A DNA stretch of 64,000 nt. It comes from Alteraurantiacibacter aquimixticola (GTDB taxonomy: Bacteria; Pseudomonadota; Alphaproteobacteria; Sphingomonadales; Sphingomonadaceae). Location: positions 62,001 through 126,000 of the forward strand of contig NZ_SSHH01000004.1 of NCBI RefSeq assembly GCF_004965515.1, written 5' to 3'. The notes below the pieces were generated by a model, which saw only the letters and a program-made list of their open reading frames with translations, did not search any database and was not told the origin of the DNA. Numbering within the stretch: position 1 is the stretch's first letter; every line of letters begins with the position of its first letter. Positions 2,490-23,437 of this stretch are shown here, in pieces. The position numbers were made by a program, and so were the translations under genes.

Positions 2490-3236
2490 TTAGGCGTCCA
2501 GCTTGTCCATGATCTCGTCGGAGATCTCGTAATTGCCCCACACGGTCTGCACGTCGTCGTCATCGTCGAGCGCATCAACGAGCTTGAGCAGCACGCCGGC
2601 ATCCTTCTCGTCGAGCTCGGTGGTGAGGTTGGGCTTCCAGGCGAGCTTCACTTCCTTCGCCTCGCCCAGCACCTTCTCCATCGCGGAGGAAACCGCGTGC
2701 AGCTCTTCCGCGCCGGTCCAGATTTCGTGGCCGTCATCGGAGGACTGGATGTCCTCGGCACCGGCTTCCAGCGCTGCTTCCAGCACCTTTTCCTCATCGC
2801 CCGCATCGGCATCGTAGAAGATATAGCCGAGCCGCTCGAACCCATGCGCCACCGAACCCGATGCGCCAAGGTTGCCGCCATTCTTCGAAAAGATCGTGCG
2901 GACATTGGAAGCGGTGCGGTTGCGGTTGTCGGTCAGCGCCTCGACAATGATCGCGCTGCCGCCGGGGCCGTAGCCTTCGTAGCGCACTTCCTCGTAACTC
3001 TCGTCATCGCCCGCCGTCGCCTTGTCGATCGCGCGCTGGATATTGTCCTTGGGCATGGACTGCGCCTTGGCCGTGTTGACCGCGAGGCGCAGGCGCGGGT
3101 TCATGTCCGGATCGGGCGTGCCCAGCTTCGCCGCGACGGTGATTTCGCGGGAAAGCTTGGAAAAGAGGTTGGAGCGCTTCTTGTCCTGCGCACCCTTGCG
3201 GTGCATGATGTTCTTGAATTTGGAATGGCCTGCCAT
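2490..3236 (-). CDS. yebC: YebC/PmpR family protein
   Basis: 248-aa member of the widely conserved YebC family, identified by the N-terminal [20 protein letters not shown] signature and the [23 protein letters not shown] segment. Family members have been described as DNA-binding transcription regulators (PmpR), and some are implicated in translation at difficult sequences. Full length. It precedes ruvC by 18 bases and both are probably cotranscribed. Confidence 0.95.
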
Positions 3237-3282
3237 TGGTTCCTACCGGTTGGGCTGCGTTTCGGGGACGGCTCTTACCCTC

Positions 3283-4026
3283 ATGGCAATCAGTGAAGCA
3301 AGGCTAGCGATTCTCGCTAGGCACGGACGCGGCTTGCTGGCCGACGTCTGGGCCTTCGCCAAAAACCCCTCTCCTGTGGCCGAGCCGCTGGCGCCGGGAC
3401 GCACATGGGCGGCCCTGCTCTTGCTGCTTCTCGCGCTCGACATGGCGGTGGCGCTGGGTGCGCAAACCGTGCTCTGGGGCGCGGAATTCGCCGGATATGA
3501 ACCGCCCGAACCATATGAGAGCGACCTGTCGGTGTGGGAGGACCTGCTGCAGCTCGTCATTCTCGCCCCGATCCTTGAGGAGGCGATCTTCCGCGGCTGG
3601 CTGTCAGGCAAAGGATCGGCGCTGAAGCTCGGACTACGCTGCATCGTGGGCGTGGCGATCATGCTGCTGGGCGATGTCGTGCTCGTCGGACGGGTGGACG
3701 AGACGATGGCCTTCGCGGTCTGGCTCGCGGGCCTCATCATCCTGTTCGCCTCGCTGGTGCTGTGGCTACTCAACCGCAAGCGCGAGAGCAGCGTGCCGGA
3801 CTGGTTCAGCCGCAATTACCGCCTGCTGGTGTGGGGAAGCGCGCTTGCCTTCGGCCTCAGCCACCTGGTCAATTACGAGGGGCAGATCGAGGTGATCGAC
3901 GCCATCCTCGTCCTCTCGCAGACCGTGGGCGGGCTGATCCTCGCCTATACGCGCACAAGGCTGGGACTGGCCGCGGCGATAGCCCAGCACGCCATGTTCA
4001 ACGCGCTGGTCTTCGCCTTCGAATAG
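3283..4026 (+). CDS. CPBP-family intramembrane metalloprotease
   Basis: 247-aa membrane protein of the CPBP (CAAX protease and bacteriocin-processing) family. The conserved metal-ligand motifs are EExxxR (ILEEAIFRGWL, about residue 100), FxxxH (FGLSHLVNY) and HxxxN (AQHAMFNA) near the C-terminus. Several hydrophobic segments are visible, including AALLLLLLALDMAVALG, the run starting LAGLIILFASLVLWLL, and the C-terminal helices. The start at 3283 was chosen because upstream codons in the frame overlap yebC and its promoter. Substrate unknown. Confidence 0.85.
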   Translation: MAISEARLAILARHGRGLLADVWAFAKNPSPVAEPLAPGRTWAALLLLLLALDMAVALGAQTVLWGAEFAGYEPPEPYESDLSVWEDLLQLVILAPILEEAIFRGWLSGKGSALKLGLRCIVGVAIMLLGDVVLVGRVDETMAFAVWLAGLIILFASLVLWLLNRKRESSVPDWFSRNYRLLVWGSALAFGLSHLVNYEGQIEVIDAILVLSQTVGGLILAYTRTRLGLAAAIAQHAMFNALVFAFE

Positions 4027-7337: not shown

Positions 7338-8140
7338 GCGCTTTCGGCGCGCTTCTCAGCCAGCGCCTCATCCAGATCGTCGGGCAATTCGTAATAGCCG
7401 CCCGACAACTCGTCATATTTCCCCGAGGCAAGGTCCACGCAGCGCTGGGCGCAGCGGGCGAGGTCTCCCTGCGCCTCGGGATCGTCGACCCGCTCCTTCA
7501 GCCGCTCGACCATTCCGCCCAGATATTGCTGCGCGGCGGCATCCTCCATCGTCTCGCGCGCCAATTGCGTAGGGACGAAGCCGGGATCGATGGCGAAAGT
7601 ACAGACCGGCGTATCCGCAAGCTCGGCCGCGGCTTCCGCCACCAGCCGGTTCTGCGCGATCTTGCCGGTGCAATAGGCCGAAAGATGCGGGGCGACGATG
7701 CGTGCCGCTTTGGCCGAAACGCAGATCACCCGTCCCTGCCCGCGTTCCACCATCCCCGGCAGCACCGCCTGCATCAGCAGGAAAGGCGCGCGGATATGGA
7801 TTTCCTGCGCGCGCCACCATTCCTCCGGCGGCACTTTCCAGAGCGGCCCGAAGGGCCCCGGCACGCCGGCATTTGAAACGAGCAGGTCCACTGGCCACAG
7901 CCCGCGCTCAACCTGCCGCACCGCGCGCATGATCGAATCGGGCTCGGTCAAATCGCACTGGACGGCCAGCGCCGTTCCTCCGGCATCAGATATCGCGCGC
8001 TCGACATCCTCCAGTTGCGCGATCGAGCGGGCGAGCAGCGCCACTTGCGCGCCCTCTGCCGCGAACCGCTCTGCAATAGCGCGCCCGAATCCGCGCCCCG
8101 CGCCGGTTACCAGCGCCACCTGTCCTGCCAGAATGCCCAT
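7334..8140 (-). CDS. SDR-family NAD(P)-dependent oxidoreductase
   Basis: 268-aa classical short-chain dehydrogenase. The cofactor motif TGxxxGxG is TGAGRGFGRAI (residues 12-22), NAG is present in VSNAGVPG, and the catalytic S/Y/K set appears as CVSAKAAR followed by YCTGK. The tail extends about 30 residues beyond the usual SDR core (DELSGGYYELPDDLDEALAEK). Substrate cannot be predicted. It is the last core gene before the island's left end. Confidence 0.9.
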   Translation of the reverse strand: MGILAGQVALVTGAGRGFGRAIAERFAAEGAQVALLARSIAQLEDVERAISDAGGTALAVQCDLTEPDSIMRAVRQVERGLWPVDLLVSNAGVPGPFGPLWKVPPEEWWRAQEIHIRAPFLLMQAVLPGMVERGQGRVICVSAKAARIVAPHLSAYCTGKIAQNRLVAEAAAELADTPVCTFAIDPGFVPTQLARETMEDAAAQQYLGGMVERLKERVDDPEAQGDLARCAQRCVDLASGKYDELSGGYYELPDDLDEALAEKRAESA

Positions 8141-8208
8141 GAACGTCTCCCTCGCCGCGCATGGCTAATCGCCGCGCAAGGCGGTGTCGAGATAGGACCT
8201 GCAATGAA

Positions 8209-8259
8209 GGAAAATGGAGCGGGCGATGAGATTCGAACTCACGACCCCAACCTTGGCAA
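8209..8259. repeat. attL: 51-bp direct repeat with tRNA-Gly 3' fragment
   Basis: Identical by eye to 23387-23437. Bases 8215-8259 equal the 3' 45 nt of the tRNA-Gly gene including its encoded CCA (read on the minus strand); sequence identity stops at 8260, in the anticodon arm. No intact tRNA can be folded here. Confidence 0.93.
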
Positions 8260-8309
8260 CCTAAAAAACTCGATTGTCTCCGGTTGCATAGCCTTGCAGA
8301 ATCCCCGAT

Positions 8310-8407
8310 ATTGCAGTGACTTATCCAAGAGGATGCAATGCGTTGCAACCGCTTGTGACGGGTCACTCACTGCAATCTACCTGCAAAATCAGAGGAGACC
8401 TACAACG
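8310..8407 (+). promoter_or_regulatory. integrase upstream region with candidate arm-type or Xis sites
   Basis: A perfect inverted repeat, ATTGCAGTGA (8310-8319) and TCACTGCAAT (8367-8376), lies between attL and the integrase start, with further TTGCA-type motifs between. CTGCAAAAT (8381-8389) and CCTACAACG (8399-8407) recur close together at the other island end (23320-23338). This is the layout expected of integrase arm sites or excisionase sites; function is inferred. Confidence 0.5.
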
Positions 8408-9544
8408 ATGCCTAGCGTCGAACTATCCGCTCGCCAGCTTGACTCGCTGCCTCGGCCAGAAACTGGCCTCGTGCGCTATTGGGATACGGTAGTCCGCGGC
8501 CTTGTCGCCCATGTCCGCCCGACAGCGACCACGCTTTACTTTCAGATCGACCAGCGCGGCAAAACCAAGCGCGTCAATCTTGGCCGCTTTCCTACCGTCA
8601 GCGTCAACAAGGCCCGCGATGCCGCGCGCCAACTCGACTACGAGATGCGCTTTGGCAAAGCGAAGGGCTTGGAGCGGCGCGAGATCACGCTGCATGATGC
8701 GCTGAACACCTATCTCGAAACCACCCGCGCCTGCGACCAGCATGTGGCCTACGTGAAGCGCGCATTGGAGGTTCGGCTTGAGGAATGGCTATCGCACCCC
8801 CTCTCCGAGATCACGGGCGCAATGGTGCGCAAGCGTCACCGCGAATTGACAGACGATGGCCCGGTCATGGCGGACGAAACCATGCGCGCGATGCGTGCCG
8901 TATGGAACGCCGCCCGCGACGAGTTTGAGAAGTATGACATACCACCCTGCCCCACCGACATCTTGCGCAAGCGGTCAGGCAAGAAACAGGCGTGGAACAA
9001 TCCGCAGCCGACACGGAACAAACCAATCCACGATCTTGCTGAATGGAGCGAAGCGGTCGAACGGATCGTCAACCCGGTGCATCAAGAGTTCTATCGCTGG
9101 GCATTGCTGACAGGAATGCGCAAGGGCGAGATCGCACGGATGGAATGGGAGCATATCGACCGTGAACGCCGCTTTCTAACGATCCCCAAGACCAAAAGCG
9201 GGCGCGAGCACTACCTGCCGCTCAACGATCACCACTTTGCCATTCTCGACAGGCTGGAAGAACAGGGTCGCTACGTGTTCCCTGACCGCACTGGCCAGAA
9301 GCCTGTCGTCCACCCGCGCCATGACGAGGTGCCCGGCACACTGCATTCCCTGCGCCACACCTGGGCGAGCGTCGCAGCCGAGATTGGAATCCCGGAAGAT
9401 CAAATCGGTCGCATCCTGAACCACAGCAACGGGATGCGCTCTGTAACCAATCGCTACATCCACGTGCATGTCGATAGTATGCGCCCCGTCATGGACGCTG
9501 TAACGGACGAACTGGCCAACCGTTTAAATAATTCGGAGGCTTGA
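8408..9544 (+). CDS. int: tyrosine recombinase / island integrase
   Basis: 378-aa phage-type integrase that would catalyse recombination between the tRNA-Gly att site and the island. Catalytic residues of the C-terminal domain are visible: R238 (LLTGMRKGEI), a lysine near 263 (PKTKSG), H313 and R316 (HSLRHTWAS), H339 (LNHS) and the nucleophile Y350 (TNRYIH). The N-terminus resembles the arm-binding and core-binding domains (TLYFQIDQRGKTKRVNLGRF). ATG at 8408 is preceded by GGAGA at a good distance; the frame is open further upstream through attL, but that part is tRNA read-through. It sits 149 bases from attL, distal to the intact tRNA. Confidence 0.95.
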   Translation: MPSVELSARQLDSLPRPETGLVRYWDTVVRGLVAHVRPTATTLYFQIDQRGKTKRVNLGRFPTVSVNKARDAARQLDYEMRFGKAKGLERREITLHDALNTYLETTRACDQHVAYVKRALEVRLEEWLSHPLSEITGAMVRKRHRELTDDGPVMADETMRAMRAVWNAARDEFEKYDIPPCPTDILRKRSGKKQAWNNPQPTRNKPIHDLAEWSEAVERIVNPVHQEFYRWALLTGMRKGEIARMEWEHIDRERRFLTIPKTKSGREHYLPLNDHHFAILDRLEEQGRYVFPDRTGQKPVVHPRHDEVPGTLHSLRHTWASVAAEIGIPEDQIGRILNHSNGMRSVTNRYIHVHVDSMRPVMDAVTDELANRLNNSEA

Positions 9545-10014: not shown

Positions 10015-12966
10015 ATGTTCACCATAGCCTCTTCCTGGGACCAAAGGCCGATAGCCAAGCGGCTCAAGGTCGACGGCGACCGCATCGTTGCGGACCAGAC
10101 TGTCTGGCCGTCGCGGATGCTTTTTCAGTCTGTGCGCTCCCACGAACTCGACAGCGCGGCCAAAATCTATGCCTTCCTTTGCCACCACGCAGAGCGAGGC
10201 AATGCGCTTATTCCGACTAGCCGGAAAGACGATGCGCCGCTCAACGGCGAGCGGAGGGGCGATGACTTCGAGCGCGTCGCCACCAGCGTCTATGTGTGCG
10301 AGGTCGATGGTGCGCCGTTCCTCGATGGTTACACGCGCGAAAATCTGATCCGCGACCCCGAAGGTGTGCTCGACAAGCACATACGGCACTATCACAACCT
10401 GCCAGAGAAGTACTCTTACGTCGCTGTGCTGTCCTCGTCGGCTGGCTTCTCGAAGGATGGTGAGGCCATCGGCCTCCGCTATCACTTATACTTAGCCCTC
10501 TATCGGCCATACCAGCCGCACGAGATTGACTACATCGACGAGATTCACGGGCGGGTGCTTGGCGAGGCCTGCGACACGAGTATCCGCAACCTTGGTCAAT
10601 TCCTGCTTGTTGCGCCCCCGATCATCGACGGCGGTGATCCGTTTAAACAGCGCATCTTCTACAGCGCGCGGGAGAGTGAACACGTTGCATTCCGCTTCCC
10701 GCCAGAATTCGAGACGCTGGAAAAGGCAGCGACGATGCCAACGCGCGGCACATCTTTCGCGATGCCGCGATTGAATAAGGACGCGTTCGATTCCGAGTCC
10801 TACCGCTCCGAGGCCGTGCAATACTGGGTTGCTCGGACGCGCTGGCACGATCCCAAGATGACTTGGGCGGAAGCTTACCCGCTACTCGTCGCGGAGATGG
10901 AAAGGGTCGGTGCGTCGGCGGACGCATGGAAAAGGCTCGGCGGCGCAGACTTGTCGGAGGCCGCGCGCATGTGGCGGCAGTTCAAGTTCCGCGACAGCGA
11001 CAGGACAGGCTGGTGCTTGCCGCGCTACATCGAACCTGCGGGGTCCGTGGATGAGGCATACGCCGGCATGGAGCGCGAACTAGAGCGCGTCTTAGAGACC
11101 CCCGGCCACCATCTGTTCAAGCTGCCCCTCGGCGTCGGGAAATCGCATCAGATCGTTGAGAAGGCGACGCGAGAAAGCCGCAATACGGTGATCATGGCAC
11201 CGTCCATCGAGCGATGTGAAGAAATGCAAGAGCGACTGAATGCGGAGGAGGAAAAGCGGCGATACCTCGACCAGACTAGCTGGGAAGACTTCGATCCAGA
11301 AAGCGAGGTCGGCGTTCCATTTGAGGTCTGGCGGGGCCGAAGCCAACCCGGAATGTGCGCGCGTCGGGAAGCGGCGGAAGCCGTCTTTGCTGCGGGCGGC
11401 TCCGTTTACAAAGACCTGTGCGGTCACGGTCAGGACATCAAATGTCCCTTCTTCGCCAAGTGCCGCCACGTGCAGCAATATGAGATGATCGGGCATCGCC
11501 GCTGGATTGTCCCGTCGAATACGCTGACGCAGGAGCGGCGCATCGGGAACGAGGCCGAAGTCGTCTTCATCGACGAGGGCATCACCAACCACTTGGCTGG
11601 AGGCACATCGTTCAAGCTTTCCGCCCTTCTCAAACCGCGCCACCCGCGCCTCGATGAACTTAGCAGGCGCGCCCATGCGGCACTTGTCGATGGCGACACG
11701 GAAACGATGTCGCCGCGCGACTTCGGCTTGACCCGGGCCGAGATAGCAGAAGCCCTCGATCTCGAATTGAGTCTGAAACCTGTTGTGATGGTGTCGCCCG
11801 CGATGGATGACGATACTATCATACAGGAGGTCAGCCGCACTTCTGGCCGCTATCATCCCGCCCTATACAGGTTCTGGAAGCAGCTGCTCGCGGAATGCAA
11901 TCTCGACCGCGACTATGTGAACGCGATCCACAAATACTACGCCCGCGACCAAAAGGAATGGAAGGTGCGCGTCGGTTGGCAGGTCGAGGCTGACTTCCTC
12001 AACGATCAGCAGGTGGTCGTATTCTTCGACGCAACGCCGAACGAGATGGCCTTGCGCGCGCATTTCCCAGACCTTGAGACGATCGAGTTCAATGCGCCTA
12101 ACCGTAACGTGCATGTCGCCCAGGTGCTGAACATGAGCGGGCGCAAAAATCAGTTCCTCGCCCGCGAAGAGCGGCAGAAGGAACTCGAACGCGCCTATGC
12201 CAACCGTGAGGGACTGGCGAAATGGCTGAACGGCCAGCCGGGTTACACGGTGTGCATCTTACCGAAAGACGTGCGCGAACTGATCGAGGCCGAGCACGAG
12301 TTTCCGCATGTCGCCTTCGGCCACTACGGGGCCGTGCAGGGACAGGACGAGTGGACTTTCGGCAATGGTGTGACGATGAAAGGCGCGGAGGTCGATTGCT
12401 TGGCGCAATTCGGTCGCTCGGCTCCACCGACATGGGATGTCGAGGCGATTGCGATGGGTCACTTTTGGCGGGGCGAGAAGCTGGTCCGCGTTCCGGTGCC
12501 AGAGTCCGGCATTCCTTGGTACGATCAGCGCGAGAAGGCGATTGCGGAAGGGTATGCAGGTTATGAGCTGCGCCACCCTGACGAACGCGCGGATTCCGTC
12601 GCGCGCGACATCTGGCACGCATCGCAGTTACAGGCCTTCGGACGCGGGCGGGCGACGAGGCGCAGTAAACCGCTGCGCGTGTTCATCGGTCACTTCCTCG
12701 CGCTCGATGTAGAGGTGGCGGAGGCTCTAGAGGAGCGCGAATTGATGGCGCGCTGCGGTGATGTTCTGCTGCTGTCGCCGCCAGAGATCGAGCGGGTGTT
12801 CGGTTATAGCGGGCGGTTCGTCGAGCGTGTGAAGCGGGCAGCGAACGTCAAATACTGGGTGCGTGAGGGGCAGACACAGCCATATCGGGCGTGGGTCCGT
12901 GAGGACGGTGATCTCGATGCGGCTATGGTGGAGATAGGCGCGTTGCGGTGGGAGAAGAGGTGCTAA
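10015..12966 (+). CDS. putative primase-helicase with Fe-S cysteine cluster (island replication protein)
   Basis: 983-aa protein, probably two modules. Residues ~90-240 hold E96-x-D98 (VYVCEVDG), SSSAGF (140-145) and RYHLYL (155-160), which resembles the acidic and S/H motifs of archaeo-eukaryotic primases; this is tentative. Residues ~345-900 look like a superfamily 2 helicase of XPD/DinG type: Walker A PLGVGKSH (K376), cysteines C448, C469, C477 and C483 between Walker A and B as in Fe-S helicases, then VVFIDEGI (D520, E521) and VVFFDATPNE. The C-terminal QAFGRGRATR could be the arginine-rich motif VI. Position after alpA fits autonomous island replication. The start has no clear ribosome binding site and could lie downstream. 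Confidence 0.7.
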   Translation: MFTIASSWDQRPIAKRLKVDGDRIVADQTVWPSRMLFQSVRSHELDSAAKIYAFLCHHAERGNALIPTSRKDDAPLNGERRGDDFERVATSVYVCEVDGAPFLDGYTRENLIRDPEGVLDKHIRHYHNLPEKYSYVAVLSSSAGFSKDGEAIGLRYHLYLALYRPYQPHEIDYIDEIHGRVLGEACDTSIRNLGQFLLVAPPIIDGGDPFKQRIFYSARESEHVAFRFPPEFETLEKAATMPTRGTSFAMPRLNKDAFDSESYRSEAVQYWVARTRWHDPKMTWAEAYPLLVAEMERVGASADAWKRLGGADLSEAARMWRQFKFRDSDRTGWCLPRYIEPAGSVDEAYAGMERELERVLETPGHHLFKLPLGVGKSHQIVEKATRESRNTVIMAPSIERCEEMQERLNAEEEKRRYLDQTSWEDFDPESEVGVPFEVWRGRSQPGMCARREAAEAVFAAGGSVYKDLCGHGQDIKCPFFAKCRHVQQYEMIGHRRWIVPSNTLTQERRIGNEAEVVFIDEGITNHLAGGTSFKLSALLKPRHPRLDELSRRAHAALVDGDTETMSPRDFGLTRAEIAEALDLELSLKPVVMVSPAMDDDTIIQEVSRTSGRYHPALYRFWKQLLAECNLDRDYVNAIHKYYARDQKEWKVRVGWQVEADFLNDQQVVVFFDATPNEMALRAHFPDLETIEFNAPNRNVHVAQVLNMSGRKNQFLAREERQKELERAYANREGLAKWLNGQPGYTVCILPKDVRELIEAEHEFPHVAFGHYGAVQGQDEWTFGNGVTMKGAEVDCLAQFGRSAPPTWDVEAIAMGHFWRGEKLVRVPVPESGIPWYDQREKAIAEGYAGYELRHPDERADSVARDIWHASQLQAFGRGRATRRSKPLRVFIGHFLALDVEVAEALEERELMARCGDVLLLSPPEIERVFGYSGRFVERVKRAANVKYWVREGQTQPYRAWVREDGDLDAAMVEIGALRWEKRC

Positions 12967-13399: not shown

Positions 13400-13522
13400 C
13401 TTGTATGCCCCTGATTACCGTATACCGCTGACGAGCGCGCGGAACTTCCTCGAATCTGCGGTTGAGCAGCCCCGCAGCGCCGTCCACGTTCAGCATCAAC
13501 GAACGATGTTGCAGGACATGCC

Positions 13523-14188
13523 ATGAGTTATGCTGTCGGATACCTCCGCGTTTCCACCGGTCGCCAAACGCTCGGGATCGAAGCCCAGCGGCGCGCCGTG
13601 GACCACTTCGCACACCAGCACGGCTACAACCTGATCGGTGACAGATATTACGAGGAGGTCGAGTCAGGGTCGCGCGACGACCGCCCGGAGCTTGCCCGCG
13701 CTCTCGATCTCTGCCGCGTTTATGGTGCCACCCTCATCGTTGCCCGCCTCGACCGCCTTTCGCGCGACGCTGCCTTTCTGCTCGCCTTGCGCAAGGAGAA
13801 CATTGCCATCCGGTTTGTCGATCTGCCCAGTGCGGACGAGTTCATCATCGGCATCCTTGCCGTTGTCGCGGAGCATGAGCGTCGCCTGATCAGCCAGCGC
13901 ACCAAGGAAGCCTTGGCCGTGAAGAAGGCGCAGGGGATCAAGCTTGGTGGTCATCGCGGTGGCACGATCAGTCCAAAGGCCAGCGAACGATCAGCAGCGG
14001 TCAGGACAGCAAAGGCAGTGAAGCGCGCCCGTGTAACTCTTGGCCAAGTGAAAGGCTGGCAGACCATGCCGACAGCGCAGATCGCCCACCGCCTGAACGC
14101 AATGGGCATCCCGACTGCATCAGGCCGCGGCGAGTGGACTTATGAAAAGGTCCGTGCCGCCATCAACCATTTGGAGAAAGCAGCATGA
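13523..14188 (+). CDS. serine recombinase (resolvase/invertase family)
   Basis: 221-aa small serine recombinase. The catalytic serine is in VGYLRVSTGRQ (about S12), followed by the resolvase landmarks EEVESGSRDDRPEL, LIVARLDRLSRDAAFLL and VVAEHERRLISQRTKEAL; the E-helix dimer region and a C-terminal helix-turn-helix (TMPTAQIAHRLNAMGIPT) follow. It probably acts on the palindromic DNA about 200 bases upstream, resolving multimers or inverting a segment. Because the island already has a tyrosine integrase, a role in resolution is more likely than in integration. Confidence 0.93.
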   Translation: MSYAVGYLRVSTGRQTLGIEAQRRAVDHFAHQHGYNLIGDRYYEEVESGSRDDRPELARALDLCRVYGATLIVARLDRLSRDAAFLLALRKENIAIRFVDLPSADEFIIGILAVVAEHERRLISQRTKEALAVKKAQGIKLGGHRGGTISPKASERSAAVRTAKAVKRARVTLGQVKGWQTMPTAQIAHRLNAMGIPTASGRGEWTYEKVRAAINHLEKAA

Positions 14189-14209: not shown

Positions 14210-14581
14210 CTATTCGATCTGGTCGTTCGTGGTGTCGCTGCCGTTGCCATCTGACAAAAGATTGGGCTTCTGAGTGCCTATTCGGCCCGTAGCATGCTCG
14301 ATATCTCTTACTTTGAGGGAAATGTCTTGAAGTCGCTCGTTAAAACTACTCTGCACCGCGAAGACAGTAGCTTGTGTTTCTTTCATCGCTTCATATTTCA
14401 CATCGGACTTGAGCGCGGTCATCCCTATTTCTAGACGCCGAACGTCTTCTCCCAATTTGGCAACTGCTGTGGCAATTTCCTTTTGGGCCGTTTGGAGTGC
14501 TTTGACATTTTCAATCAACTTCAGGTGGTCAGTTATCTCCTCGGCAAGTTCAGCTGCCTGCTTTCGGCTAAAAAATGCCAT
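14210..14581 (-). CDS. coiled-coil protein coupled to the L7/L12-like gene
   Basis: 123-aa hydrophilic protein of no recognised family. Residues ~5-100 are predicted helical with heptad-like spacing (AELAEEITDHLKLIENVKAL, IATAVAKLGEDVRRLEIGM, FNERLQDISLKVRDIEHAT); the tail is polar (LLSDGNGSDTTNDQIE). There are no cysteines or membrane segments. Its ATG shares one base with the stop of the L7/L12-like gene (TGATG), so translation is almost certainly coupled and the products may bind each other. Composition is less GC-rich than the core genome. Confidence 0.72.
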   Translation of the reverse strand: MAFFSRKQAAELAEEITDHLKLIENVKALQTAQKEIATAVAKLGEDVRRLEIGMTALKSDVKYEAMKETQATVFAVQSSFNERLQDISLKVRDIEHATGRIGTQKPNLLSDGNGSDTTNDQIE

Positions 14582-15108
14582 CAGCTGGCCTCCATAACAG
14601 GCGCAAGCGTATTTCGGACGAAAGCGATATGATGGTCTGGTTGATCTAAGAGTGCCTCTTGAAGTTTTTGCGCAACAATCTTCGCAAACTCCTTTAGCTC
14701 GATGTCAGCGCTAGCTGCGCTACTCTCAAGCTCAACCGTAGCACCACTACCTTCCAGCTTTTTCTTTATCTTCTCGGCTCCAGCCTTATCCACGCCCTCC
14801 ATCAGCGTCTTCGGTGCGCCTTCGACAAGCGCCATGGCTTCTCTCAAGGAGAGACCGGTGATGGCACGAACCTCCTTTATGACCTGTATTCGCTTCCCGC
14901 CGTCGCCGGTTAAAATGACGTCAAACTCGTCTTTTTCCTCTATCGCGTAACCACCCCCGGCAGCGGGGCCAGCGCCAGCAACAACTGCCACAGCGCTTGC
15001 ACCCCACTCTTCTTCAAGTGCTTTTGCCAATTCAGCCGCTTCCATCACAGTCAACTTCCTCAAGTCAGACTCTTCTTCGAGGGACTTTGTCGATTTCGGG
15101 TCAGCCAT
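14581..15108 (-). CDS. ribosomal protein L7/L12-like protein with extended C-terminus
   Basis: 175-aa protein clearly related to the ribosomal stalk protein bL12. Residues ~15-40 ([20 protein letters not shown]) match the dimerising N-terminal domain; residues 40-57 form an Ala/Gly hinge; residues 58-128 match the C-terminal factor-binding domain ([30 protein letters not shown], then [20 protein letters not shown]). A further ~45 residues beyond normal bL12 are unique ([20 protein letters not shown]). The usual EAKDLVE is EAMALVE, so one conserved lysine is lost. It is in a mobile island without rplJ or rpoB, so it is not the housekeeping gene. A role in modifying host translation, or an L12-like domain recruited for something else, is inferred. 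Confidence 0.85.
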
Positions 15109-16233: not shown

Positions 16234-16378
16234 AACGCCGCGCTCTTTCTTTCATATCGGTTGGGAAGCACCCCCGCGCCGTCCACGATCAGGTCTGAAG
16301 CGAGGCCGACCCTCGCATAACCCAGGCCGGGGTTCACGAGACATCTACTTCCTCGGCCAGTGAATTGGAGACGTCCAA

Positions 16379-17321: not shown

Positions 17322-17860
17322 ACGGTCGCCGCTGCACGGTGTGCTCGCACCCTCGCGTGGACGAGATCAACCGCGCCATCGTCGCGGGCACATCGCGCAC
17401 GGCTATCGAGCGGAAATTCGGTATCACCCCCGACAGCCAGCGCCGGCACGAGGAAAACCACATCACGGAAGAGATGCGCCGCGAGATCGTGGTCGATCTC
17501 AAGCGGGAGCGCGCGCAGGAGACGGCGAACGAACTGAATGACGAAAGGCTGGATATCGCGGCGACCTATGATGGTCTAGCGCGGCGCGTTGGGAAGCTGA
17601 TCGACAGGGCAGAGGAGAATGGGGACGACAGCCTTGCCTTGGCGAGCATGGAAGGCCTGCGCCGCGTCCTCTCCGACATCGCGAAGATGCAGGGCAAGCT
17701 GGCCCAGCAGCTAACCGTGCAAGTGAGCCTGATGGACAGCAAGGAGTGGATTGTCGTCCGCGACCTGCTCGAACGGGTCTTCAACGCCCATCCCGAAGCG
17801 AAGGCGATGTTCCTCCAACTTGCCAAGCGCGAGCGGCTTTCGATCACCGATGCTCGATGA
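17315..17860 (+). CDS. small-terminase-like protein (TerS-type)
   Basis: 181-aa protein with an N-terminal CxxC (RRCTVCSHPRVDEIN) and a helix-turn-helix-like segment (GTSRTAIERKFGI, then RRHEENHI), followed by a long helix/coiled coil (RRVGKLIDRAEENGDDS). This layout is common in phage proteins encoded directly before the large terminase, where they recognise packaging DNA. A GTG start is used; two GTGs are adjacent (17315 and 17318), both served by GAGGAG at 17304-17309. The gene overlaps the ATPase gene by 11 bases. Assignment rests on layout and position. Confidence 0.65.
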   Translation: MVNGRRCTVCSHPRVDEINRAIVAGTSRTAIERKFGITPDSQRRHEENHITEEMRREIVVDLKRERAQETANELNDERLDIAATYDGLARRVGKLIDRAEENGDDSLALASMEGLRRVLSDIAKMQGKLAQQLTVQVSLMDSKEWIVVRDLLERVFNAHPEAKAMFLQLAKRERLSITDAR

Positions 17861-18593
17861 TTGGCTCCTATCCCTTGAAGAACGGCTCGATCCCGTCCTC
17901 CTGTTCGAGAGGTTCGTCGGCAATTCGGCCGACGGATGGCAGGCCCGCATCCTTCGCTCTAGCGCGGCGACGATGGCTCTGCGGGTCTGTCGACAAGCGG
18001 GCAAGTCGTGCTGCCTTGCAACGCTCGCCATCGTTGAGATGCGGAAGGGTGGAACAGTCCTCGTGATCTGCCCAGCGGAGCGGCAGGCGAAGGAGTTGGC
18101 GCGCAAGGTCCGCGAATACCTCCCCATGACCGACTTGGTAGTGGAGCGATCCACGCAGACAGAGATCGAGGTTGCCAATGGCGCGCGGCTGATCTGCGTT
18201 CCGTCCACGGGAGCGACGATCCGTGGCTACACGGTCGACCTGCTGCTGATCGACGAGGCCGCTTTCTGCGATGATGACAGTCTGATCGCCGTGCTGCCGA
18301 TGGTGAAGGACTGCGGGCGCACCGTGTTCGCATCCACCCCTGCGGGCCGCACAGGCATGTTCGCTAGCCTGTTCCTCGAACCTAAGCCCGAAGTCGAACG
18401 GATCGTGGTCAAAGGAACTGAAATTCCCCGCCTCGCTGCGCGCGTCGAACGCCTGCGTGTCGCCTTGCCTCCGACGAAGTTTCGCCAAGAGGTCGAGGTC
18501 GAAATGCTCGGCGGCGGGGAGAACTACTTCGACATTGCAGCGATCGAGCGGGCGGTATGTGACCGAAAGGCACTCGAACTATGTCTTACCTGA
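17850..18593 (+). CDS. large terminase, ATPase part (separate gene)
   Basis: 247-aa protein holding only the ATPase half of a large terminase. Walker A is RQAGKS (48-53), Walker B is LLLIDEA with D135 and E136, and motif III is ASTPAG (161-166). Typical large terminases are 450-600 aa with a nuclease domain in the same chain; here the frame stops at 18593 and the nuclease continues in a second frame starting 13 bases earlier. It could be a natural two-gene terminase, a site of programmed frameshifting, or a decayed gene. Confidence 0.85.
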   Translation: MLDDWLLSLEERLDPVLLFERFVGNSADGWQARILRSSAATMALRVCRQAGKSCCLATLAIVEMRKGGTVLVICPAERQAKELARKVREYLPMTDLVVERSTQTEIEVANGARLICVPSTGATIRGYTVDLLLIDEAAFCDDDSLIAVLPMVKDCGRTVFASTPAGRTGMFASLFLEPKPEVERIVVKGTEIPRLAARVERLRVALPPTKFRQEVEVEMLGGGENYFDIAAIERAVCDRKALELCLT

Positions 18594-19288
18594 TCCAACC
18601 CGATGGTACGGCCATTCTCAAGGCAGGCGCTGACCCTGCCATCGAGCGGGTGCAGGGCTACTCCCGCTATTGGCTTGGGGTCGATCTTGCCCAGGCGCAG
18701 GATAACACCGCCCTTGTCGTCATCCATGACGAGCAACTGCCCGTTTGGGCTGGCCCAAATCGTCAGATGCTTGGGCCGAGAACGCGTACAGTCATCTACG
18801 CCGATAAGTTCAAGGGCGTATCCTATCCCGATGTCGTCTCGCACGTTATTCGCGTCATGACGCGCGAGCCATTGCGCGGGCGGACGCGCCTTGTTGTCGA
18901 TGGCTCGGGGCTAGGCCGTGTGGTGTCGGATTTGCTCCACGATGCAGGAGTGCAGCATACGGCAATCCAGATGACCGCAGGGCAGAATTGGAAGCGGTCA
19001 GGCCGATACACCAATGTCGGCAAAACCCTCATGCTTGAGTGCCTGTCCGTCCTGTTCGCAACGCATGAATTACAATTCGCGCAGGGCTTGGCGCTGCGCG
19101 AGGACATCCTTGCCGAACTTGAGACTTTCCAGTTGGAAACCACCGCTGCTGGCAATCAGGTGATCGTGCAGGGCAAGAGCGGGGCGCACCATGGCGACCT
19201 TGCCATTGCGCTCGCAGGCGCTGCGTTCGCGTCCGAATATCTCAAGCCAGGAGTGGTTGGCGTGGGGCAGTTGGAGGGGTGGATTTAG
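18581..19288 (+). CDS. large terminase, nuclease part (separate gene)
   Basis: 235-aa protein matching the RNase H-fold nuclease domain of large terminases. Three acidic residues that would bind metal are D35 (LGVDLAQAQDNTALVV), D107 (LVVDGSGLG) and D206 (HHGDLAIALAG). Its own ATG lies inside the end of the ATPase gene, 10 bases after an AAAGG that could serve as a ribosome binding site. The frame is intact through the whole domain, which argues against simple decay. No portal or capsid gene follows; the next genes are the oppositely oriented ImmA/ImmR pair. Confidence 0.85.
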   Translation: MSYLIQPDGTAILKAGADPAIERVQGYSRYWLGVDLAQAQDNTALVVIHDEQLPVWAGPNRQMLGPRTRTVIYADKFKGVSYPDVVSHVIRVMTREPLRGRTRLVVDGSGLGRVVSDLLHDAGVQHTAIQMTAGQNWKRSGRYTNVGKTLMLECLSVLFATHELQFAQGLALREDILAELETFQLETTAAGNQVIVQGKSGAHHGDLAIALAGAAFASEYLKPGVVGVGQLEGWI

Positions 19289-19294
19289 CTGACC

Positions 19295-20176
19295 TTACCG
19301 CCCGTATGCAAAGCGCGGTTTCCAACTCTCTTCGAGCTGCGCATCTTCATCATCTGCTTCGGTCGGATCCTCGGGCAGTTCTTCGCTGCTAAGAACGGTC
19401 AGGGTGTAGCCATATCCGCCGAGGCCAAGGACTTCTTCGTCGAGTTCGATATCGCGGGGGCCATCAAACCATATGGACAAATCGGTCTGTTCTGTTGATC
19501 GACGACCAAGACGCACGTTTTCTGGCGTCGCATTGAAGCGGCTTGTCGCGCTGGTCGGGAGGGGATCGCCTTTTCGCAAGAATGATAGGCGCCCCAGGCT
19601 CTTAAAGGCTTCGGACAGGAAAGCGTAGGCAATCTTCTGGCCCTTGCTGACGATTACAGCGACTGGATATGGGCAGCATTCTGCCGAGCGAATTGCAGCC
19701 GCCGTGATCGAGGTCTTCGCTACGCCAGCAAGTTGGACAATTCCGTCAAGGCCGATTTGGCTCTCGCCAAGTAGATTCCGAGTAAGGCGCGAGGGCATAA
19801 GCAACCCGCTCGCGAAATGATCTGCCTCCAACTCTATGGACGTGTTCTCCGTAAAGGAAGCCCGCGAGAGGTGCATACCACCAGCCTTGGCAATTTCTTC
19901 CGGATGGCCCGGCAAGAACCAATGCCCAAGTTCGTGTGCGATGGAAAAATTCTCGAAGCCCTCGTTTTGAAGCTCTGTCGAATAGATGATCATCGCAGAA
20001 TCACCCGCTAAGATGATCGCACCCGACACGCCAGTGACTTCCGGCGGTTTGGCTTCGACGGAAATATCCCTGCTCTCGGCAATTTTTCTCGGGCAGACCG
20101 GAAAGCTTTCGAAGCCAAAGTCCAAAGCTATCTTCTCGCCGAGGCGGGTTGCCACCTTGAGCCGAAAACCCGCCAC
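19295..20176 (-). CDS. immA: ImmA/IrrE-family metallopeptidase
   Basis: 293-aa COG2856 zinc peptidase. The HEXXH motif is IAHELGHW (H81, E82, H85), and the downstream ELEADHFASGLLMP supplies the third ligand region. In ICEBs1 and related elements ImmA cleaves the repressor ImmR to switch the element on. It is encoded just after an XRE repressor (10-base gap), the classical pair. The C-terminal ~120 residues (after about 170) are outside the peptidase core and could sense the inducing signal. Confidence 0.9.
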   Translation of the reverse strand: MAGFRLKVATRLGEKIALDFGFESFPVCPRKIAESRDISVEAKPPEVTGVSGAIILAGDSAMIIYSTELQNEGFENFSIAHELGHWFLPGHPEEIAKAGGMHLSRASFTENTSIELEADHFASGLLMPSRLTRNLLGESQIGLDGIVQLAGVAKTSITAAAIRSAECCPYPVAVIVSKGQKIAYAFLSEAFKSLGRLSFLRKGDPLPTSATSRFNATPENVRLGRRSTEQTDLSIWFDGPRDIELDEEVLGLGGYGYTLTVLSSEELPEDPTEADDEDAQLEESWKPRFAYGR

Positions 20177-20186
20177 GCCAACTGAC

Positions 20187-20501
20187 CTACTGCTTCTTAC
20201 TGGTCATCGAGTCGATCATGCCTTGGATGATATCCCGATCCCGTGCGGACAACTTGTCTTCATGCCGAAACGCGGTTGTCGGCCCGGACGAACCGAGCAG
20301 GTAATCCGCTGATATGCTGAGCGCCTTTGCAAGGGAGCGGACGTTGTCGAAGGACGGTTTGCGCCTCCCTGCCTCGAAGTGCGCTATTGCACTAGGCTGA
20401 AGGCCAGCGAGCCGCGCAAGGTCCGACTGGGTTAGCTCACGGTTTTCACGTTGCTTTTTCAGCCGAGCAGCGAACGTTGGTGGCAAGCTTGACTCGCTCA
20501 T
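20187..20501 (-). CDS. immR: XRE-family repressor (ImmR-like)
   Basis: 104-aa protein with a lambda-repressor-type helix-turn-helix: FAARLKKQRENRELTQSDLA, then GLQPSAIAHFEAGRRKPSFD and LAKALSISADYLLG (residues 10-70). The C-terminal ~35 residues would be the cleavage or dimerisation part. Likely keeps the island, or the divergent CBASS promoter, silent until ImmA cleaves it. The start overlaps an ATGACG half-site that recurs in the intergenic region. Confidence 0.9.
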   Translation of the reverse strand: MSESSLPPTFAARLKKQRENRELTQSDLARLAGLQPSAIAHFEAGRRKPSFDNVRSLAKALSISADYLLGSSGPTTAFRHEDKLSARDRDIIQGMIDSMTSKKQ

Positions 20502-20597
20502 GACGGAAGCGTATAGTTAATCATATGTTAAACGTCATGCCCTCCGGGGCCTTTTTTTGGCAAAGGCCTGTTACAGAACGTCATGCCCTATATGACG
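20500..20597. promoter_or_regulatory. divergent immR/CBASS control region with repeated CGTCAT sites
   Basis: AACGTCATGCCCT occurs twice (20531-20543 and 20577-20589). The second forms CGTCAT-N7-ATGACG (20579-20597), and ATGACG at 20500-20505 mirrors CGTCAT at 20533-20538. These are good candidate operators for the ImmR-like repressor, placed to control both its own gene and the CBASS operon. A 7-bp stem-loop (GGCCTTT/AAAGGCC, 20548-20568) lies between them. Confidence 0.62.
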
Positions 20598-20634
20598 GGT
20601 CGAATCACGGGTCAAGCGTGCCGGAGGCGGGCTG

Positions 20635-21648
20635 ATGGAAACTAGCGACAAGCCACCAGATGCACCAACCTACCGTATCCTGAGCATCGACGGGGGCGGC
20701 ATAAAGGGCGTGCTCCCTGCCTCATTCCTTGCCACGCTGGAAGAACAACTAGATGGTCCAATTGGACAGTATTTCGATTTAATTGCAGGCACCTCCACCG
20801 GCGGAATTATCGCCATCGGCCTCGCCATGGGGATCCCAGCGAAAGACCTGCTCACGCTCTACACCGAACGCGGCCCCAGGATTTTTGGTCAGGCAGAAAG
20901 CGGCATTAAGGGCCGATTGGCCGACTGCTGGCGCGGCTTCAAGCACACATTCACGGCCAAGCACGACGCGGACCTACTTCGGGAAGAACTTGAAGCAGTG
21001 CTTGGGGATCGACGGATTAGTGATGCCCAAACCCGGCTGCTTATTCCCGCGTGGGACGCCGATCACCGGAGCGTGTATATCTACAAGACCGCCCACCATG
21101 AGCGCCTAAAGCACGATTACCGACTACTAGCAGTTGACGCGGCGATGGCGACGGCGGCAGCCCCAACATACTACAGGAGGCACCGGACCGCCGAACATGT
21201 CGGTCTACTAGATGGCGGCATCTGGGCCAACAACCCAATTGCGCTGGCAGTGGTTGAAGCAATCACCTTGCTGGGCTGGCCTTCGGATCGTCTGCAGGTG
21301 CTGAGCCTCGGCTGTGGAAGTGAAACATATATGCTCGGTGAAGCACCCGGTTGGGGATCACTCGCGTGGGACGCCGCTAGGCTGTTTTTCGACGGGCAAT
21401 CTCACGGCGCTAATGGCATGGCCAAGTTGCTTACCGGCCATGAACACACGCGGGATGCGATCTACCGGTACTGCCCAGCCGTTCCGAAGGACTTCTTCAA
21501 GCTCGATGACACTCGTCGAGCGAGTCAGCTGTCTGGAATGGGGGCCTCGGCGGCGAGGAAAGCCCGCCCGAAGCTGGATCCTGTCTTTTTCGCCCAGCCT
21601 ATCGAACCATTTGAACCGATCTATTCTCTGGAAGGCGATCACCGATGA
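20635..21648 (+). CDS. capV: CBASS effector, patatin-like phospholipase (CapV type)
   Basis: 337-aa patatin-family lipase. The oxyanion motif is SIDGGGIKG (D19-G22), the nucleophile elbow GTSTGG (S54), and the catalytic Asp LLDGGIWANN (D193). In CBASS, cyclic nucleotides from the adjacent CD-NTase activate CapV to degrade the inner membrane and kill the infected cell. It is the first gene of a three-gene operon; its ATGA stop overlap with the CD-NTase gene shows coupling. Less GC-rich than the core genome. Function follows from motif plus gene context. Confidence 0.93.
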   Translation: METSDKPPDAPTYRILSIDGGGIKGVLPASFLATLEEQLDGPIGQYFDLIAGTSTGGIIAIGLAMGIPAKDLLTLYTERGPRIFGQAESGIKGRLADCWRGFKHTFTAKHDADLLREELEAVLGDRRISDAQTRLLIPAWDADHRSVYIYKTAHHERLKHDYRLLAVDAAMATAAAPTYYRRHRTAEHVGLLDGGIWANNPIALAVVEAITLLGWPSDRLQVLSLGCGSETYMLGEAPGWGSLAWDAARLFFDGQSHGANGMAKLLTGHEHTRDAIYRYCPAVPKDFFKLDDTRRASQLSGMGASAARKARPKLDPVFFAQPIEPFEPIYSLEGDHR

Positions 21649-22850
21649 ACACGATGTCAAACCAGTTCACGCTCCCTTTTGAAGCTGCCAAGAAGGCCGA
21701 AGTCTTCGGGATATTGGAGGCGATATGCCAAGAGCTGGAACCCACGAAGACCCAGCTGGAAGCTGTCACCACAAGCTACAATGCTGTTGGGAAATGGCTG
21801 GCGGAATCGTCCAATCCAATGCTCGCCGGTTCATCAATTTACGCCCACGGTTCTACCGCGGTAGGGACCACAGTGCGGCCAATTGGGCAGAACGAGTTCG
21901 ATGCCGATCTAATTCAGCACGTGCTCAACTTCACCGCCGACCAATCCCCAGCCGAACTCAAGCGCATTGTCGGTGATCGGCTCCGGGAGCACACTGCATA
22001 CGCCGCGATCCTTGTCGAAAAGAAGCGTTGCTGGCGGCTTGATTATGCGGGCGACTATCATCTCGATATATCGCCAACGATAGCGAACCCCGCCTGCGAG
22101 AACGGCGGTGAATTGGTGCCAGACAAGAAGCTCCGTCAGTTCAAGCCGACCAACCCGAAGGGCTTCAAATCTCTTTTCGAGCGACGGGCCGAACTGATGC
22201 CGAGGTTCCGTTTAGCGAAGACAATCACCGATGGTGTATCCCCGCAGGCTTCCGTTGAGCCGTTCCCTACCCACAGTGGAAACAAGGGTGTTTTGCGTCG
22301 GACCGTGCAGCTCCTTAAGAGACACCGAGACCTTCACTTTCTGCCCGTTACCGACGACATTGCCCCTATTTCAATCATCATAACGACGCTGGCTGCAAGG
22401 TCGTATGAATTCTGTGTCGATCACTTTACCTTCGAATCAGAGCTAGATGTCCTCGTAGCGACGATCCGCTTGATGCCGCACTTCATAGACAGGCCAATTG
22501 TGTCGGGGCAGCGCATCTATGTTGTCGAGAACGAAACGACCAGCGGCGAAAATTTTGCTGATCGGTGGAACTCCGAGCCCCAGCGCGCCGCCGCCTTCTA
22601 CGAATGGCATGCGAAGGCCCTGAGTGACTTCGAAGGACTGGCCGGGCTGGAAGGCATGGATAAGCTCACCAAAAGCCTGAATGATAGTCTTGGGCCGTCG
22701 CTGGTGCGGGGCGTTATCGACAAACGCACCGAAGAGATTTCCGCAGCGCGCACCGACAAGAAGCTGTTCGTCGCGCCTATGGTTGGGCTGACCACTTCTG
22801 CCATGGCTAGCGCGACGCCAGTGAAGCCCAACACCTTCTTCGGCGACTAG
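21645..22850 (+). CDS. CBASS CD-NTase (cGAS/DncV-like nucleotidyltransferase)
   Basis: 401-aa CD-NTase that should make a cyclic oligonucleotide on phage infection. Active-site motifs are HGSTAVGTTVRP (G69, S70), E-F-D-A-D with D86 and D88, and a third Asp in YHLDISPT (D141). The helical C-terminal domain is present. The encoded C-terminus is NTFFGD; in type II CBASS the CD-NTase C-terminus is joined to other molecules through the E2-like enzyme, so this tail is the likely conjugation end, with one residue after the glycine. The clade and product cannot be assigned by eye. Confidence 0.93.
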   Translation: MNTMSNQFTLPFEAAKKAEVFGILEAICQELEPTKTQLEAVTTSYNAVGKWLAESSNPMLAGSSIYAHGSTAVGTTVRPIGQNEFDADLIQHVLNFTADQSPAELKRIVGDRLREHTAYAAILVEKKRCWRLDYAGDYHLDISPTIANPACENGGELVPDKKLRQFKPTNPKGFKSLFERRAELMPRFRLAKTITDGVSPQASVEPFPTHSGNKGVLRRTVQLLKRHRDLHFLPVTDDIAPISIIITTLAARSYEFCVDHFTFESELDVLVATIRLMPHFIDRPIVSGQRIYVVENETTSGENFADRWNSEPQRAAAFYEWHAKALSDFEGLAGLEGMDKLTKSLNDSLGPSLVRGVIDKRTEEISAARTDKKLFVAPMVGLTTSAMASATPVKPNTFFGD

Positions 22851-22851
22851 A

Positions 22852-23319
22852 TTGTTCACTTCTCGCCAGCCTCGCCTAACCGCAGCGGCGCAGTATCTGT
22901 TCCTGCGCAAGAACCCTATTTGTAGTGGCAGCGGCAGCCTTCGTGCCGGGGCCCTCACTTGGGAATACAAGGTCAGACCGAGTCTGATTGGTCGGGAGTA
23001 TACCGTCCGCATCGAATACCGGCAGGGTTCCACTCCGCGTGTCTTTGTGATTGACCCTAGTCTTTCAGAACTGGCTGGCGACAGAGACCTGCCGCACGTT
23101 TATCGCGACCCATTGCGGCTTTGTCTCATGCTTCCCAAGGCCTTCGAATGGGACTCTTCGATGCGGATAGATCAAACGTTCGTCCCCTGGGCAGCTACGT
23201 GGCTCTACTATTTCGAAGAGTGGTTGGCCTCAGGCGAATGGAAGGGCGGAGGAACACACCCAGACCCATCAGACACGGAACAATTGAATCGCCGGGACCG
23301 TCGAGCGCGCGGGCGCTAA
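22852..23319 (+). CDS. CBASS E2-like protein (type II-short)
   Basis: 155-aa protein resembling the E2-like subunits of short type II CBASS, which prime the CD-NTase by a thioester link to its C-terminus without a separate E1. The candidate catalytic cysteine is C91 in PLRLCLMLP, preceded by LPHVYRD (H82); the typical end block is WLYYFEEWLASGEWKGG. It starts one base after the CD-NTase stop and appears to use TTG; no strong ribosome binding site is seen, so coupling to the upstream gene is likely. No Cap3-like peptidase or E1 domain is present. Confidence 0.82.
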   Translation: MFTSRQPRLTAAAQYLFLRKNPICSGSGSLRAGALTWEYKVRPSLIGREYTVRIEYRQGSTPRVFVIDPSLSELAGDRDLPHVYRDPLRLCLMLPKAFEWDSSMRIDQTFVPWAATWLYYFEEWLASGEWKGGGTHPDPSDTEQLNRRDRRARGR

Positions 23320-23386: not shown

Positions 23387-23437
23387 GGAAAATGGAGCGG
23401 GCGATGAGATTCGAACTCACGACCCCAACCTTGGCAA
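23387..23437. repeat. attR: 51-bp direct repeat, within intact tRNA-Gly
   Basis: Identical copy of 8209-8259. It contains the 3' 45 nt of the tRNA gene plus 6 flanking bases, so integration regenerates a complete tRNA at this end. Confidence 0.93.

What the first reader, a model, noticed from the sequence alone, without database searches (positions are those of the whole stretch)
14210..15108. Ribosomal L7/L12-like protein on a mobile island, coupled to a coiled-coil partner
The 175-aa protein has the L7/L12 N-terminal, hinge and factor-binding domains plus a unique 45-residue C-terminal extension. Its stop overlaps the start of a 123-aa coiled-coil protein. L7/L12 copies are not normal mobile-element cargo. 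Possible roles: an altered stalk that redirects translation factors during infection or stress, or a decoy for phage or host factors. Loss of one conserved lysine (EAK to EAM) suggests altered factor binding. This is the best candidate for an undescribed system here.
Basis: partly seen in the sequence, partly recalled or inferred. Interest (0 to 1): 0.82.

Follow-up and report, generated by a model that had tools for sequence, protein, structure and literature searches.

The report
Phage-borne ribosome stalk protein with partner
A mobile DNA island carries a spare, lengthened copy of a ribosome stalk protein together with a rod-shaped partner protein, and the same two-gene unit sits in a phage, which hints that mobile elements use it to act on the host's protein-making machine.

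Summary
On a 15.2-kb island between 51-nt repeats at a tRNA-Gly gene, a 175-aa full-length bL12 (L7/L12) with a 48-residue C-terminal extension is followed by a 123-aa coiled-coil protein, sharing one base (TGATG). One viral contig (L068, 35.7 kb, with phage terminase and head-protease genes) has the same pair in the same order, also overlapping. Partners are 38% identical over 111 aa and the extensions share LDxPxHHxxxVRxxLAxV; 0 of 10,000 shuffles reach either score. Each bL12 body is closer to cellular bL12 (75% and 72%) than to the other (57%). The pair is rare: no other convincing copy among 385 class genomes, and 1 of 9 viral-contig bL12s has it. Virus-encoded bL12 is published, so 'not normal cargo' is too strong; an extended full-length bL12 with a dedicated partner did not appear in my paper searches. 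EAK-to-EAM is real but absent from the phage copy. Best reading (0.4): it enters the host stalk and its tail tethers the partner to ribosomes. Function is untested.

The parts
14581..15108 (-). Extended bL12 (175 aa): NTD about 14-36, hinge about 37-57, CTD about 58-127, extension 128-175
   Evidence: recurs in L068:2974-3567
14584..14727 (-). C-terminal extension (48 codons) with LDxPxHHxxxVRxxLAxV
   Evidence: alignment with L068; score 60, maximum 44 in 10,000 shuffles
14210..14581 (-). Partner (123 aa): one long helix 6-97 and a tail predicted unstructured
   Evidence: 38% identical over 111 aa to L068:3564-3935, 2e-20
14579..14583 (-). TGATG stop/start overlap
   Evidence: ATGA in L068
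8209..8259 (.). Left 51-nt repeat of the island
23387..23437 (.). Right 51-nt repeat, over the 3' part of tRNA-Gly
8015..9544 (+). Tyrosine-recombinase-like integrase of the island (ORF as listed; true start likely later)
13523..14188 (+). Serine resolvase next to the pair
   Evidence: PF00239, 110.4 bits

Best explanation
A two-gene accessory module of a phage and a phage-related island. The first gene is a bL12 that has stayed close enough to cellular bL12 to dimerise and sit on uL10 in the host ribosome stalk, by exchange with host bL12 or as a heterodimer with it. Its extra C-terminal segment is a docking tail for the long-helix partner, which is made from the same message by coupled translation. 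The module thereby places the partner on a fraction of ribosomes, next to where translation factors are recruited, and so biases or blocks translation to the element's benefit (during induction, or against a competing phage). SHOWN here: the module, its domain make-up, its recurrence as a pair in a phage, protein-level selection on both genes, and bodies that each resemble cellular bL12 more than each other. INFERRED: stalk incorporation, partner docking, and any effect on translation.
For: NTD nearly intact (19 of 22 residues as in host rplL; CTD 55 of 71). CTD pN 0.14 against pS 0.69 relative to host rplL. Bodies: island 75% to its best cellular bL12, L068 72%, each other 57%, as expected if the body must fit each host's stalk. 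Extension and partner recur together beyond composition and heptad controls (0 of 10,000 each); partner differences 51/23/71 by codon position over 96 codons. Overlapping genes in both copies. A Salmonella phage bL12 was found in E. coli ribosomes by mass spectrometry (PMC6375957, passages).
Against: Only two copies are known. Incorporation and docking are untested; the model of the extended bL12 is poor (mean pLDDT 48.6) and no complex could be predicted. In the same paper a tagged viral bL12 could not be purified with ribosomes. The AU test does not reject a sister relation of the two bodies (p = 0.25), so body-tracks-host is not proven. The island copy has five changes at CTD positions invariant in 46 others. 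Overlap with a downstream ORF is not special: 2 of 8 other viral bL12s also overlap one, unrelated to the partner.
Confidence: 0.4

Rival explanations
1. Off-ribosome decoy or adaptor: the bL12 CTD binds a translation factor (host or phage) in solution and the extension delivers it to the partner, so factors are sequestered rather than ribosomes tagged.
For: CTD fold kept; extension and partner conserved together. Codon usage of the island bL12 is unlike host rplL (GC3 0.53 against 0.71), which would fit low expression.
Against: The uL10-binding/dimerisation NTD is the best kept part, which a soluble decoy would not need. A low-copy decoy competes poorly with abundant host bL12. Island copy lacks K84 and K95.
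Confidence: 0.2
2. Toxin-antitoxin or abortive-infection pair: one protein blocks translation through the stalk, the other keeps it in check until infection.
For: Two small overlapping genes of low GC on an island that also carries a CBASS operon.
Against: No PADLOC match for bL12 and only 13-15-bit coiled-coil matches for the partner. Nothing shows toxicity; the phage neighbours that I searched are not known defence genes by PHROGs or Pfam (PADLOC not run on them).
Confidence: 0.16
3. Plain viral bL12 that helps translation of the element's own genes; extension and partner only adjust assembly or stability.
For: Virus-encoded bL12 is a published kind; 8 other viral-contig bL12s lack the extension.
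Against: Does not explain a conserved extension and a conserved, always-adjacent partner in the two copies.
Confidence: 0.14
4. A captured rplL copy without a function, drifting on the island.
For: Long branch (0.416 against a median of 0.085) and changes at near-invariant sites.
Against: Open frames with pN well below pS, and the same extension and partner in a phage.
Confidence: 0.07

Closest known systems
Cellular bL12 (rplL; TIGR00855, PF16320 + PF00542)
   Same: Both domains and the full 15-127 stretch match above curated cut-offs; sequence falls in the host-family clade
   Different: 48-residue extension, coupled partner, located on a mobile island apart from rplJ-rplL, five changes at CTD positions invariant in 46 others
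Virus-encoded bL12 (Mizuno et al. 2019, PMC6375957; abstract and passages read)
   Same: bL12 gene carried by a mobile element; one example incorporated into E. coli ribosomes
   Different: The cultivated-phage examples there have 28-47% identity over part of the protein, often a domain inside a larger polypeptide (Table 1 passage); here the body is full length, 72-75% identical to cellular bL12, with a conserved tail and partner. I did not see that paper's supplementary alignments
Other viral-contig bL12s found here (L089-L096)
   Same: bL12 in IMG/VR contigs
   Different: 8 of 8 end at the normal C-terminus and none has a downstream ORF related to the partner (5 downstream ORFs compared)
YmcA and RicA (PDB 2pih, 6prh)
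   Same: Best PDB sequence matches of the partner profile apart from SepF; helical proteins by recall
   Different: E = 0.027 and 0.17, not significant

Membership tests
bL12 (TIGR00855) | Match over the curated cut-off across the body | tested here: met
   125.8 bits, cut-off 84.4
bL12 (TIGR00855) | N-terminal dimerisation/uL10-binding domain | tested here: met
   PF16320 43.5 bits, cut-off 25; 19 of 22 residues as in host
bL12 (TIGR00855) | Conserved factor-binding lysines of the CTD (K65, K70, K84) | tested here: inconclusive
   Island: K65R, K70 kept, K84M; phage copy keeps all three. K65R active in PMC6110070, impaired in PMC10602876
bL12 (TIGR00855) | Assembly into the ribosome stalk | not testable with these tools
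   Needs biochemistry or complex prediction
Virus-encoded ribosomal protein | Gene inside a viral genome | tested here: met
   L068 pair lies between terminase and head-protease genes of a viral contig. The window copy is on an integrative island, not a complete phage
Virus-encoded ribosomal protein | Purifying selection | tested here: met
   CTD pN 0.14, pS 0.69, synonymous sites near saturation
Known anti-phage defence protein | Match to a PADLOC model | tested here: not met
   bL12: none; partner: three matches of 13-15 bits to parts of long proteins
Toxin-antitoxin pair | Toxicity of one gene, neutralised by the other | not testable with these tools
   No expression data

The most novel reading that the evidence does not exclude
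A module of phages and their island relatives that re-programmes host ribosomes through the stalk: an extended bL12 whose body matches its host's own bL12 docks on uL10 and carries a dedicated rod-like partner to the factor-recruitment site. A cellular protein would serve as exchangeable anchor, with a virus-specific tail and cargo.
Probability: 0.33. Interest if true: 0.85.

Novelty: new variant of a known kind. Interest (0 to 1): 0.66.

Why it matters
Why viruses carry ribosomal proteins is open, and for bL12 even firm incorporation was uncertain. This pair gives a handle: a tail and a partner found so far only in mobile copies. If the tail tethers the partner to the stalk, it shows how an element could act on ribosomes without modifying rRNA, and it offers a tag for pulling out marked ribosomes.

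Tried and rejected
Partner against family libraries: Pfam, NCBIfam, PHROGs and PADLOC gave only sub-cut-off or low-scoring matches; tblastn of the window partner and of the phage partner found nothing in plasmids or phages; Foldseek viral library, best E 6.0; PDB profile search, best E 0.027.

Searches that found no second copy before L068: L12 in viral contigs by single-sequence patterns, partner in viral contigs, extension plus partner in genome contigs, partner in 298 family genomes, own included. Searches used exact 8-residue patterns; searches missed L068, which is in that collection. So absence from the bacterial collection is weak evidence.

Extension alone in 385 class genomes: six weak matches besides the window (E 0.017-0.095); none of the six loci holds an L12 body by tblastn. 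Partner profile in 385 class genomes: eight weak matches besides the window, E 2.7e-4 to 0.01, in frames of 340-578 aa; none of the eight loci holds an L12 body. I take both sets as chance. Partner profile in 36 genomes of another order: none (no positive control in that set). One search shows that the profile finds the two copies it was built from. The second genome-contig scan gave six loci; their L12s end at the normal C-terminus.

Second L12 copies: 5 of 385 class genomes have two TIGR00855 matches, the window's included. In the other four the second open frames are 105, 131, 52 and 224 aa; the 105- and 131-aa ones end normally, the 224-aa one is another protein with repeated CTD-like stretches, the 52-aa one is a fragment that I did not read. 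In the 59 family genomes only the window's genome has two matches.

Related islands: the 983-aa neighbour has no match in 396 other family genomes or viral contigs, only 23-28% matches in 8 plasmid records; the second terminase-like gene found nothing in viral contigs or phages. The extended-bL12 model is too poor to search. Promoter and terminator scan showed nothing beyond chance at the pair.

Rows dropped: of 30 host-family L12 loci the script recovered 26 coding sequences (L014, L017, L025, L036 not picked up). Of 19 loci taken, L063 was not an L12 region, and L055 and L057 gave no usable frame in the script, so 16 entered the trees, with L042-L044.

Full report
What is there. Two overlapping minus-strand genes. 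The first (14581-15108, 175 aa) is a complete bL12: PF16320 and PF00542 above cut-off and TIGR00855 at 125.8 bits against 84.4, followed by 48 extra residues. The second (14210-14581, 123 aa) starts on the last base of the first gene's stop codon (TGATG), with GGAGG seven bases upstream. Its single-sequence model is one helix, residues 6-97, mean pLDDT 84.9 in the best of five models (others 63.0-77.2), with a low-confidence tail. The same genome has an ordinary rplL on another contig, 75% identical over residues 15-129 (that it follows rplJ is my reading, not a search).

Context. The pair lies on an island with perfect 51-nt repeats 15,178 bp apart, the right one over the 3' part of a tRNA-Gly gene. 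The island has a tyrosine-recombinase-like gene, a serine resolvase beside the pair, two genes that match terminase large-subunit families, and a CBASS operon: phospholipase, cyclase and E2-like proteins with CapP and an adjacent HTH gene. The pair is the lowest in GC (0.53 and 0.48) of the 15 island genes measured; the other 13 are 0.55-0.63.

Origin of the bL12 body. Among 46 other bL12s (26 of the host family, 19 from elsewhere in the class, one E. coli) the island body falls with the 26 host-family sequences (support 99) on a branch of 0.416 against a median of 0.085. The family looks like Sphingomonadaceae to me, but that name is recalled; no call gives it. Against host rplL the CTD has pS 0.69 and pN 0.14. 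The NTD keeps 19 of 22 residues, the CTD 55 of 71. Changed where 46 of 46 others agree: V32A, A35V, K65R, G79S, K84M, K95M, K120E; and S12R where 45 of 46 agree. V32A is shared by the phage copy, and its K120 position is also not lysine; it keeps K65, G79, K84 and K95.

The pair elsewhere. A scan of IMG/VR (2.9 million contigs by the tool's description) with an L12 alignment gave three loci. L068 (IMGVR_UViG_3300048586_000896, 35,686 bp) has a 197-aa bL12 at 2974-3567 and a 123-aa protein at 3564-3935, overlapping by ATGA. The second proteins are homologous: BLASTP 2e-20, 38% over 111 aa; score 198 against at most 83 in 10,000 shuffles and 85 in 10,000 heptad-register-preserving shuffles. The extensions score 60 against at most 44 in 10,000 shuffles, centred on LDxPxHHxxxVRxxLAxV. 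Partner differences fall 51/23/71 on codon positions 1/2/3 over 96 codons, the pattern of a selected protein. The contig is phage: a terminase large subunit and a head-maturation protease lie on either side of the pair, with an integrase-like gene, these three on the strand opposite to the pair.

Different histories of the parts. The two bodies are 57% identical, while the best cellular match is 75% for the island and 72% for L068; the ML tree puts the island body with the host family (support 100) and the phage body outside it, with weak support for its exact place. Extension and partner have no cellular relative that I found. A simple reading is that a virus-specific tail and partner are combined with a body taken from, or kept similar to, the host's bL12. 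It is not proven: forcing the bodies together costs 22 log-likelihood units, but the AU test does not reject it (p = 0.25). GC3 falls from body to extension to neither side uniformly: island 0.56, 0.48, partner 0.50; L068 0.69, 0.61, partner 0.57.

How rare. The partner profile is strong only in the window's genome among 385 class genomes; eight weak matches there have no L12 beside them. Phage and plasmid records give none. Of nine viral-contig bL12s in the last scan, one (L068's contig again) has extension and partner and eight end normally. Two of those eight also overlap a downstream ORF, unrelated to the partner, so coupling alone is not distinctive. Exact-pattern scans of the bacterial collection found no second pair, but the same kind of scan missed L068 in the viral one.

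Mechanism. Best kept is what is needed to enter the stalk, the dimerisation and uL10-binding domain. A viral bL12 was seen in E. coli ribosomes by mass spectrometry, though a tagged one could not be purified with them (PMC6375957; abstract and passages). The extension is shared specifically with the other element and travels with the partner; docking of one on the other is the natural inference. I therefore favour a stalk-borne tether that brings the partner to ribosomes. As the phage copy keeps K65 and K84, these changes are a trait of this island's copy only.

Known or new. Virus-encoded bL12 is known. A full-length, C-terminally extended bL12 with a dedicated partner did not appear in seven answered paper searches (listings only; passages of four papers read, a jumbo cyanophage with several ribosomal proteins, has no occurrence of bL12). 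The library holds open-licence papers only. I rate it a new variant of a known kind, with a mechanism that would be new if the tether is right.

Noticed in passing
window 19295-23319: CBASS operon with phospholipase effector, cyclase and short E2-like protein, with CapP (PADLOC 209 bits) and an adjacent HTH gene.
   Followed up: partly
window 17751-19288: Two overlapping ORFs that match terminase large-subunit PHROGs in their first half and phrog_27743 plus weak terminase matches in the second: possibly a terminase split in two genes.
   Followed up: partly
window 13459-13493 and 16258-16292: 35-nt direct repeat, 83% identical, on either side of the resolvase-pair stretch, each a short way before an ORF. 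Meaning unknown.
   Followed up: no
window 10015-12966: 983-aa protein without Pfam or NCBIfam match; 23-28% identical to helicase/primase-like plasmid proteins; not found in 396 other family genomes.
   Followed up: partly
L048 (second match in G580): 224-aa protein with an N-terminal hydrophobic stretch and repeated L12-CTD-like segments in another class genome.
   Followed up: no
L090:1878-2210 and L092:1851-2072: Two other viral-contig bL12 genes overlap a different downstream ORF by 4 nt (110 aa and 73 aa); unrelated to the partner here.
   Followed up: partly
L046 (second match in G474): Divergent full-length L12 (131-aa frame, about 30% identical to the island body) in a genome with 5% contamination; may be foreign DNA.
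   Followed up: no
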